In this document: in pieces, positions 26,921 to 29,482 of the stretch
Numbering within the stretch: position 1 is the stretch's first letter
Layout: every line of letters begins with the position of its first letter
Assembly: GCA_030271625.1 (NCBI GenBank)
Contig: JARXKN010000001.1
Coordinates: forward strand, 372,001 to 436,000
DNA from: Patescibacteria group bacterium
Lineage (GTDB): Bacteria > Patescibacteriota > Saccharimonadia > Saccharimonadales > UBA4665
Direction of reading: 5' to 3'
Length of the DNA: 64,000 bases
Notes under the pieces: generated by a model
Databases searched by the model: none
Seen by the model: the letters and a program-made list of their open reading frames with translations, nothing else
What the model was told of the DNA's origin: nothing
Program-made: the position numbers and the translations under genes

Positions 26921-27733
26921 ATGAGCGACGTACCATTTGCCAAAAAATCGTTAGGTCAACACTGGTTGCAGGATGCTGCAGCCTTAGAAGCTATGTGTGA
27001 GTCTGCCGAAGTCCAAATGGACGACGTGGTGCTGGAGATTGGTCCTGGCTTCGGCACCCTCACTCGTCATTTGTTAGATTGGGAAGCCGATGTCATTGCC
27101 CTCGAGTTTGATGAAACTCTGATTCCAGCGCTGCGTCAAAAGTTTGCCCGCGACGCTGACGCCGGCCATTTCCGGGTCGAGCAGGGCGACATTCGCAGTT
27201 ATGACTTTAGCGTCCTCCCGGCCGGCTATAAAGTCGTCGCCAATATCCCTTATTATTTAACCAGCAATCTTATTCAGCTATTAAGCGAAACCCCCAACCC
27301 GCCATCCGTGGCAGCACTGCTCGTTCAAAAAGAGGTCGCCGAACGAGTGGCTGCCGCCGCTGGCGACATGTCCATCTTAAGTGTGACGGCTCAGTTTTAC
27401 TGGGACGTGACACTAGGTATTAAAGTACCTGCGAAATTGTTTTCGCCGCCGCCAAAAGTTGACTCGCAAATTCTGATTCTGCAACGGCGGGCGGATTTAT
27501 TAATGCCAGAAGCCGATGTGAAAGCCTTTTTCAGATTAGTGAAAGCCGGCTTTAGCCAACGCCGTAAAACACTGCTCAATAGTTTAAGCGGTGGTTTGCG
27601 TTTAGAAAAAACCGTCGTCCAGGCCCTGTGTGCGGCCGCCAATATCGAACCTGGTCGGCGCGCCCAAACACTCACCATGACCGAGTGGCGTGACTTGTTT
27701 AAGCACTATGTGGCTACTACGCCCAGCGCTTAA
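26921..27733 (+). CDS. rsmA: 16S rRNA (adenine1518/1519-N6)-dimethyltransferase
   Basis: A 270-residue RsmA/KsgA that dimethylates two adenines in helix 45 of 16S rRNA. It begins FAKKSLGQHWLQD, has the S-adenosylmethionine site EIGPGFGTLTRHLL near residue 39 and the catalytic NIPYYLTS near residue 108 (N-I-P-Y). The C-terminal part has FFRLVKAGFSQRRKTLLNSL. It starts 3 bases after the YabE-like stop, so both are co-transcribed. Confidence 0.95.
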   Translation: MSDVPFAKKSLGQHWLQDAAALEAMCESAEVQMDDVVLEIGPGFGTLTRHLLDWEADVIALEFDETLIPALRQKFARDADAGHFRVEQGDIRSYDFSVLPAGYKVVANIPYYLTSNLIQLLSETPNPPSVAALLVQKEVAERVAAAAGDMSILSVTAQFYWDVTLGIKVPAKLFSPPPKVDSQILILQRRADLLMPEADVKAFFRLVKAGFSQRRKTLLNSLSGGLRLEKTVVQALCAAANIEPGRRAQTLTMTEWRDLFKHYVATTPSA

Positions 27734-27769: not shown

Positions 27770-28237
27770 ATGAAACCTGCTAATAATCTTGGCTACTTAA
27801 TCCAACATGTGGCCGCCGTTATGGCCAAACAAGCTGATCAAGCGTTGCAAGAACAACTCGGCATTGGCCTGAGCCAGTTCAAAATTTTGATGGTGCTACA
27901 AAAGAACGATCGAGTCCAGCAGCGCTTTATTGCCGATAGCCTGGGCCAGACAGAAGCCAGTATTAGTCGCCAGATTCAGCTACTGCAGGACAAAGATTTA
28001 CTGACCTCCAAGTGCGATCCAAAGAACCGGCGCCAACATATTACCGTGCCAACACCGGCCGGTTTGGAGCTAACAAAAACGGCTATGCAGGTGTTATCAG
28101 AACTTATGGATCCGGAATTAGCCCACATGGGGCAACCAGCCTTCGAACAGCTGCTGGCTAACCTACACCAGTTGCATCAAATTGTCTGTCAGCCAGGAAA
28201 AACTGGTGCCTGCGACCATCAATTTAAAACATCATAA
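27770..28237 (+). CDS. MarR family transcription regulator
   Basis: A 155-residue MarR-type winged-helix protein. The DNA-binding region is RFIADSLGQTEASISRQIQ near residue 63, followed by the wing CDPKNRRQHITVP near residue 83. Flanking helices form the dimer interface. MarR proteins usually respond to small aromatic or oxidised compounds and repress nearby efflux genes; the DHA2 exporter at 31454 is not adjacent, so the target is not settled. The gene has its own leaderless promoter. Confidence 0.9.
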   Translation: MKPANNLGYLIQHVAAVMAKQADQALQEQLGIGLSQFKILMVLQKNDRVQQRFIADSLGQTEASISRQIQLLQDKDLLTSKCDPKNRRQHITVPTPAGLELTKTAMQVLSELMDPELAHMGQPAFEQLLANLHQLHQIVCQPGKTGACDHQFKTS

Positions 28238-28280
28238 GCACTAGCGTAGTAGCGCTATACATGATATAATCTTAAATTAC

Positions 28281-28673
28281 GGGGCTGACTTTTAAGCTTG
28301 ACGTTGGACTTTATCGGTTAAATCAGCAGGTCGCTTGCCAGCGTTATAGGCAATTTGAATTAGATGCAAACTCTACTTCTCGCTCTGACCTGATCAAGGA
28401 ATTGGCTGCAAAGCTCAACCCTGTTCAGCAATTTGCAACAGTCTAAGTTTAACTTAGACAATGCCTCCAAGATTTCAGGTATTGGAGTAGCGTTTTATAC
28501 ATCTGGATGCCCGGTTAGCGCTATCCACGTTCGCCGTTAAGATTAGGATTGCTGCTATCAGATGTTTGTTTGTTTAAATACTGATAGCCTAAGACCAAAA
28601 AACAAACTAAGCCTGTAGACGACTAACCAAGATAAACCGATGGACGCGGGGGCGGTACCCGCCAGCTCCTCCA
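28281..28673 (+). ncRNA. ssrA: Transfer-messenger RNA (tmRNA)
   Basis: Both tRNA-like ends are present: GGGGCTG at 28281-28287 pairs with CAGCTCC at 28663-28669 with the G3-U pair that alanyl-tRNA synthetase needs, and CCA is encoded at 28671-28673. The tag frame appears to resume at GCA 28366 after TTAGAT and stops at TAA 28444-28446 in a hairpin (28441-28459). It encodes 26 residues, beginning ANSTSRSDLI and ending VQQFATV, longer than usual and without the final LAA. The T arm keeps the GCGGG/CCCGC stem but its loop is GGCGGTA, not TTCRANT, and the base before CCA is T. A TATAAT is at 28265-28270. Function: rescue of stalled ribosomes. Confidence 0.92.
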
Positions 28674-28674
28674 T

Positions 28675-28707
28675 AAGGGCCTTACGACTAAAGCGTAGGG
28701 CTTTTTT
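28675..28707 (+). terminator. Terminator of tmRNA
   Basis: GCCTTACG at about 28679-28686 pairs with CGTAGGGC at about 28694-28701 (one G-T pair), and a run of six T follows. AAGG before the stem can extend it against the T-run. Confidence 0.85.
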
Positions 28708-28762: not shown

Positions 28763-29482
28763 ATGTCTAAAACAAAAATTTTTGTGGGGGTAGGAGTTGG
28801 CTTACTAGTCTTGGGGGCTGGTGGTGGCGCCTATGCCTATGTGCAACACCAGAATGCTCAGGTAAACCAAGTCGGCTCAACCAGCGAAAGTCAGTCAGTT
28901 TCAAATGCCGTGCCAGTTGATACTACAGCTAGTAATACGGACAGTAGTATCCCGCTCAACCAAGCGCCAACTGGAGCCGCCTCAGACGGTTTAACAGTTC
29001 AAAGTGTGACTGCCGAAAACAGCGCTATGCAAGCCGCCGGCACAGCCAATGCCGCTAGTCAAAGTAGCCAAGCTGGACAGAGCGGTAGTAATGGCCGTAA
29101 TCCGTTCGATCCAACTACCTTTGCTCAGTATGACAAGTACAAAGATGGTAAGGGTGGCCTGTATGGCGATGTGGCCATGGGTAATGGCACTACTCTGGCA
29201 CCGGGTAAAAAAGCAGCTGTGTATTACCGCGGTTGGTTAACGAACGGCACAAAGTTTGATGAATCAAGGGCTGGCAGTGATGGTAAGCTTGCCCCATTTA
29301 TCTTTACGCTCGGCAGTCACCAAGTTATTACTGGCTGGGAAGATGCCCTAGTGGGTATGAAAGTTGGCGGTGTGCGACTAGTGATTGTGCCGCCGGCGGC
29401 CGGCTACGGTGCCACCGCTCAAAACAACATACCGGCTAACTCTGTCTTGGTCTTCCAAGTGCAATTAGCCGACGTCCAGTAA
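28763..29482 (+). CDS. FKBP-type peptidyl-prolyl isomerase, membrane-anchored
   Basis: A 239-residue protein. Residues about 7-27 are a hydrophobic signal or anchor (VGVGLLVLGAGGGAYAYV). A Ser/Thr/Gln-rich linker of about 100 residues follows, and residues about 140-239 are an FKBP domain with YYRGWLTNGTKFDESR, FTLGSHQVITGWEDAL, GMKVGGVRLVIVPP and GYGATAQNNIPANSVLVFQV. These cover the active-site Asp, Phe, Trp and Ile-Tyr positions of the family. It would help proteins fold outside the membrane. It lies after the tmRNA terminator and has its own start, with TATAGG upstream. Confidence 0.93.
   Translation: MSKTKIFVGVGVGLLVLGAGGGAYAYVQHQNAQVNQVGSTSESQSVSNAVPVDTTASNTDSSIPLNQAPTGAASDGLTVQSVTAENSAMQAAGTANAASQSSQAGQSGSNGRNPFDPTTFAQYDKYKDGKGGLYGDVAMGNGTTLAPGKKAAVYYRGWLTNGTKFDESRAGSDGKLAPFIFTLGSHQVITGWEDALVGMKVGGVRLVIVPPAAGYGATAQNNIPANSVLVFQVQLADVQ

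What the first reader, a model, noticed from the sequence alone, without database searches (positions are those of the whole stretch)
28281..28459. tmRNA with a 26-residue tag that does not end in LAA
The likely resume codon GCA at 28366 follows TTAGAT, like the UAGNN context of other tmRNAs, and the frame ends at TAA 28444-28446 at a hairpin. The tag is about twice the common length and ends QQFATV, whereas ClpXP-targeting tags usually end in LAA or a close variant. Tagged proteins may be handled by another protease or adaptor in this lineage.
Basis: partly seen in the sequence, partly recalled or inferred. Interest (0 to 1): 0.55.

Follow-up and report, generated by a model that had tools for sequence, protein, structure and literature searches.

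The report
tmRNA from bacteria lacking ClpX
This is a real ribosome-rescue RNA from a tiny saccharibacterium; its long tag is normal for its lineage and fits a genome that appears to lack ClpX, the enzyme that reads such tags in most bacteria, and its tRNA-like elbow is also altered.

Summary
The resume codon, frame and 26-residue tag ANSTSRSDLIKELAAKLNPVQQFATV are confirmed. In 73 tmRNAs of the same family (72 relatives plus this one) tags are 20-33 residues (median 26). Only 8/73 end in LAA; most end in small nonpolar residues (ALV, ALA, AVA). So the tag is lineage-typical, not an oddity of this gene. The protease idea gains support: no ClpX over cut-off in this genome, in 0/93 family genomes and only 2/286 across the phylum. 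Those two, one family, carry short tags ending IAA and LAA. This genome also lacks Lon but has ClpP, one ClpC, FtsH and SmpB. Most likely ClpCP reads the tag; this is inferred, not shown. Position 55 is G throughout the family and covaries with the D-loop (A18/G55 versus G18/U55), so the elbow contact has been rewired rather than lost. ARAGORN finds 0/73 of the family's tmRNAs. G at 55 is already reported for Caulobacter tmRNA, and protease switching for Mycoplasma. Verdict: a new variant of a known kind.

The parts
28281..28673 (+). tmRNA gene (ssrA), one-piece, CCA encoded
   Evidence: Rfam RF00023, 53.6 bits, model 1-374/374
28281..28287 (+). acceptor stem 5' strand GGGGCUG, with the G3.U70 alanine identity pair
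   Evidence: 7 of 7 pairs with 28663-28669
28295..28296 (+). D-loop A18-G19 (tRNA numbering, assigned by comparison)
   Evidence: covariation with T-loop 55/56
28361..28365 (+). UAGAU, upstream frame-setting pentamer
   Evidence: UAGAU in 39 of 73 family members, [UC]A[AG]NU in 73 of 73
28366..28443 (+). tag ANSTSRSDLIKELAAKLNPVQQFATV, resume codon GCA at 28366
   Evidence: frame statistics
28441..28459 (+). hairpin holding the stop codon UAA 28444-28446
   Evidence: 7-bp perfect stem read from the sequence
28646..28662 (+). T arm: stem GCGGG/CCCGC, loop GGCGGUA at 28651-28657
28670..28673 (+). U73 discriminator and CCA
   Evidence: U73 in 12 of 73 family tmRNAs, A73 in the other 61
28675..28705 (+). 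intrinsic terminator
   Evidence: 12-pair stem plus T tail; 2 sites found in the region against 0.4 expected
28265..28270 (+). TATAAT, possible -10 box
   Evidence: by eye; not reported by the promoter scan

Best explanation
The locus encodes a working one-piece tmRNA of a saccharibacterium (class Saccharimonadia). Alanine-charged and bound to SmpB, it enters stalled ribosomes, switches translation to GCA at 28366 and adds a 26-residue tag (gene, frame and partner shown by sequence comparison; activity inferred). The genome has no recognisable ClpX or Lon, so the tag's nonpolar C-terminus is most likely read by ClpC acting with ClpP, with FtsH as the membrane-side alternative (inferred). Without ClpX, selection for the exact LAA end is relaxed (inferred). 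The tRNA-like elbow is kept by a compensated pair, A18/G55 in place of G18/U55, on an altered T-loop (shown by covariation).
For: tmRNA match and frame. SmpB 153 aa. ClpX absent: own, 0/93 family, 2/286 phylum. The two ClpX genomes (G110, G130, both family f27) have tags AETTPLAIAA and ADNQSLRALPLAA. Own Lon_C hits are a YifB-type Mg-chelatase-like ATPase and RadA. One ORF with ClpB_D2-small in the own genome, 824 aa from its ATG, best PDB matches ClpC, 777 bits full length. ClpP 199 aa. FtsH over cut-off. A review says ClpX binds LAA while ClpA binds ALA (PMC3968760, passages). Elbow: outside the class 24 A18/G55 and 58 G18/U55, no crossed pair in a 7-nt loop; in one fixed column A/G 19, A/U 0, G/G 3, G/U 58.
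Against: No expression, aminoacylation, tagging or degradation data. The ClpX-tag contrast rests on two genomes of one family, hence one lineage. Short tags also occur without ClpX (AKEPALALA, ANKLQPAFA), and 8 of 73 family tags still end in LAA, so tag length and end do not follow ClpX strictly. FtsH cannot be separated from ClpCP by sequence. Adaptors such as ClpS or MecA were not searched. The genome is a 23-contig, 98.5% complete assembly.
Confidence: 0.6

Rival explanations
1. FtsH, not ClpCP, is the main reader of the tag; ClpCP serves other substrates.
For: FtsH is present in this genome, over cut-off. Reviews say FtsH degrades some tagged proteins in E. coli (PMC3968760, PMC8138137; passages).
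Against: In E. coli FtsH takes only a small membrane-associated share, while ClpP and ClpC are both kept here.
Confidence: 0.2
2. The tag mainly rescues ribosomes; its degradation signal is nearly neutral, so its end drifts.
For: Ends vary widely even within the genus (FATV, PALV, ATAA, PVLV).
Against: The last three residues are all from A,V,L,I,F,Y,M,T,G in 63 of 73 tags and the last five carry a charge in only 2 of 73, which points to constraint. Five relatives share the tag core of this gene, scores 49-57 against a shuffled maximum of 39.
Confidence: 0.15
3. A degenerate tmRNA: the odd T-loop, U73 and low Rfam score mark decay.
For: 53.6 bits is near the bottom of the full-length hits in the family list; U73 where this genome's tRNA-Ala has A73.
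Against: Acceptor and T stems fully paired, G3.U70 kept, tag frame open in all 73, terminator present, elbow changes compensated.
Confidence: 0.04

Closest known systems
Canonical one-piece bacterial tmRNA (Rfam RF00023, E. coli type)
   Same: Acceptor stem with G3.U70 and CCA, T arm, GCA resume codon after UAGNN, stop in a hairpin, SmpB partner
   Different: Tag about twice as long, not ending LAA, in a ClpX-less genome; T-loop GGCGGUA with G55 and D-loop A18 instead of UUC and GG; U73
Mycoplasma/Mesoplasma tmRNA tag read by Lon (Gur and Sauer 2008, seen only as cited in PMC8138137)
   Same: A long divergent tag in a reduced genome without ClpXP
   Different: This genome has ClpP and ClpC but no Lon, so another reader is needed
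Alphaproteobacterial/mitochondrial tmRNA acceptor pieces (Caulobacter, Reclinomonas; PMC1168896)
   Same: G at T-loop position 55 (GG at 54-55 in Reclinomonas); permuted alphaproteobacterial genes also pair GGCRGTA loops with AG in the D-loop
   Different: Those genes are permuted and make two-piece RNAs; this one is one-piece, so the same elbow state seems to have arisen separately (inference)

Membership tests
tmRNA (RF00023) | Covariance-model score over the curated cut-off, full length | tested here: met
   53.6 against 47 bits, model 1-374
tmRNA (RF00023) | Alanine-type acceptor stem (G3.U70) with CCA | tested here: met
   7/7 pairs, CCA encoded; U73 is unusual
tmRNA (RF00023) | T arm and stemless D-loop able to make the elbow contact | tested here: met
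   5-bp stem, 7-nt loop; 18/55 and 19/56 columns covary. The usual UUC loop is absent, as in some accepted tmRNAs
tmRNA (RF00023) | Internal tag frame with resume codon and stop | tested here: met
tmRNA (RF00023) | Pseudoknot ring PK1-PK4 | tested here: inconclusive
   The regions align to the model but pseudoknots are not modelled and were not tested
tmRNA (RF00023) | SmpB partner encoded | tested here: met
tmRNA (RF00023) | Tags stalled proteins in cells | not testable with these tools
   needs experiment
ClpXP-read ssrA tag | Tag ends LAA or a close variant | tested here: not met
   ends ATV
ClpXP-read ssrA tag | ClpX encoded | tested here: not met
   no TIGR00382 match over cut-off; best 27.1 bits lies in the FtsH frame
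Mycoplasma-type Lon-read tag | Lon encoded | tested here: not met
   the two Lon_C hits are a YifB-type ATPase and RadA
ClpCP-read tag (proposed) | ClpC and ClpP encoded | tested here: met
ClpCP-read tag (proposed) | Degradation of tagged protein by ClpCP | not testable with these tools
   needs experiment

The most novel reading that the evidence does not exclude
Nearly the whole Patescibacteria phylum has lost ClpX and re-assigned its tmRNA tags to ClpCP, which freed tag length and end. In parallel, in Saccharimonadia and several other lineages of the phylum, the tRNA-like elbow of tmRNA switched from G18/U55 to A18/G55 (with 54/58 going from U/A to G/G in much of the window's order), dispensing with the pseudouridine-55 site and often with the methyluridine-54 site.
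Probability: 0.45. Interest if true: 0.65.

Novelty: new variant of a known kind. Interest (0 to 1): 0.5.

Why it matters
Who degrades tmRNA-tagged proteins without ClpX is a clear, testable question for a very large bacterial group. The coordinated elbow change is comparative evidence for the D-loop/T-loop contact that SmpB binding is reported to need. It also suggests that annotation relying on ARAGORN alone will miss tmRNA in genomes of this family.

Tried and rejected
A different resume codon giving an ordinary tag: rejected. Lon as reader: rejected for this genome. A second Hsp100 ATPase (HslU or ClpX type) in this genome: only one ClpB_D2-small match, the ClpC; that HslU carries this domain is recalled.

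My regex tag finder agreed with ARAGORN for 47 of 56 and made errors, so family tags come from the alignment and phylum tags from ARAGORN (78 of 90). Tags of the order and class sets were not curated and carry no claim. Literature searches for tmRNA, ClpX or tags in Saccharibacteria or the candidate phyla listed no paper whose title or abstract start is about these tags or this elbow; the library is partial and most listed papers were not opened, so absence from print is not claimed.

Dropped rows: 20 of 93 family genomes had no full-length tmRNA hit that I took; order 36 of 61, class 27 of 28, rest of phylum 90 of 259 genomes. The phylum set is the top of the score list, so it leans to canonical-looking tmRNAs.

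Full report
WHAT IS THERE. The window holds a full tmRNA gene at 28281-28673 (+): Rfam RF00023, 53.6 bits against a gathering score of 47, whole model matched. ARAGORN finds no tmRNA in the window. A terminator follows at 28675-28705. Upstream is a MarR-type regulator (27770-28237) after a KsgA-type rRNA dimethylase (26921-27733); downstream is an FKBP-type isomerase (28763-29482). Record titles of contigs whose lengths equal those of family genomes (18100, 21698, 20118, 137258 bases) read Candidatus Saccharibacteria or Saccharimonadia; the class name for the window is inferred from this.

THE TAG. GCA at 28366 follows UAGAU, and the frame runs 26 codons to UAA 28444-28446 inside a 7-bp hairpin. 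I aligned 73 family tmRNAs (own plus 72; 20 of 93 genomes gave no full-length hit that I took). 72 of 73 resume on GCA. All tags are 20-33 residues, median 26. The other two frames carry stops over the tag span in 134 of 146 cases. Endings: ALV 11, ALA 9, LAA 8, AVA 5, others fewer; the last residue is A in 48 and V in 21; ATV occurs once, here. Five relatives share the core of this tag (scores 49-57, shuffled maximum 39) and end AFAA, ALAA or AVA, so ATV looks like a derived end of an otherwise shared tag.

THE PROTEASES. ClpX (TIGR00382) is not over cut-off in this genome, in 0 of 93 family genomes, and in 2 of 286 phylum genomes; the same search is over cut-off in 10 of 14 control genomes. 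The two positives, G110 and G130, both family f27, have tags AETTPLAIAA and ADNQSLRALPLAA. They are one lineage, so this is one contrast. Outside the class 2 of 78 ARAGORN-called tags end LAA, one of them G130. This genome's Lon_C hits are a YifB-type ATPase and RadA. It has ClpP, FtsH and one Clp ATPase, 824 aa from its ATG, whose best solved relatives are ClpC. An FGF triplet in its D2 domain could be the ClpP-docking loop (by eye; motif recalled). ClpP was found in 77 and SmpB in 77 of 92 family genomes. The literature passages seen say ClpX binds LAA and ClpA binds ALA (PMC3968760), and that M. florum, lacking ClpXP, uses Lon for a tag that differs in length and sequence (PMC8138137). Hence ClpCP is the best candidate reader; this step is inference.

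THE ELBOW. The T-loop here is GGCGGUA. Position 55 is G in 73 of 73 family and 34 of 36 order tmRNAs (the other 2 have 6-nt loops), and in 25 of 27 class tmRNAs (1 U, 1 read as an 8-nt loop). Among 90 tmRNAs from the rest of the phylum, 58 pair G18 with U55 and 24 pair A18 with G55; no A18/U55 or G18/G55 occurs with a 7-nt loop. The other 8 are one A18 case with a 6-nt loop (L351), two with C55, three with U55 and two with G55 whose D-loop lacks the anchor motif used; of those three U55 cases all read GG by eye. This allows spacings of 3-5 between position 19 and the GAC anchor. With one fixed column the counts are A/G 19, A/U 0, G/G 3, G/U 58 (Fisher p 1.3e-15, relatedness ignored); association with position 55 peaks at that column (Cramer V 0.72) and association with 56 peaks at the next one (0.72). 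Both states occur in family f32. In the class, L123, L167 and L170 can be read as A18 or G18 depending on spacing, and 3 family members have U before G19. Positions 54/58 are G/G 47, U/A 22, C/A 4 in the family and U/A in 88 of 89 outside the class. Given only the gene sequences, ARAGORN finds 0 of 73 family, 6 of 36 order, 21 of 27 class and 78 of 90 phylum tmRNAs. G at 55 was reported for Caulobacter and GG for Reclinomonas (PMC1168896, passages). A review states that D/T-loop contacts are needed for SmpB binding (PMC3968760, citing Barends 2002; passages).

READING. Ordinary in kind: a tmRNA with SmpB. Unusual in lineage: a tag under relaxed end constraint in a group without ClpX, and a compensated elbow switch.

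Noticed in passing
window 28670; L020, L038, L059, L063, L071, L073, L075-L077, L079, L080 (3' ends): The tmRNA discriminator is U73 in 12 of 73 family members, this one included, while tRNA-Ala of the same genome has A73; this could weaken or alter alanylation.
   Followed up: partly
window 28281-28673 and family loci: ARAGORN misses all 73 family tmRNAs, so annotation built on it alone will lack tmRNA in this lineage.
   Followed up: yes
G384, G377, G394, G399 and G260: Several genomes hold two or more full-length tmRNA hits; L112 of G399 is canonical (UUC loop, tag AEPSLTLAA) and that bin is large and split in 630 contigs, so contamination is likely.
   Followed up: no
L147, L160, L351: tmRNAs with a 6-nt T-loop and fully paired T stem.
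   Followed up: no
L002 and L003 (G000:C4 and G000:C11): Two identical tRNA-Ala(TGC) genes on two short contigs of the own genome, one next to tRNA-Ile; possibly two rRNA operons or an assembly split.
   Followed up: no
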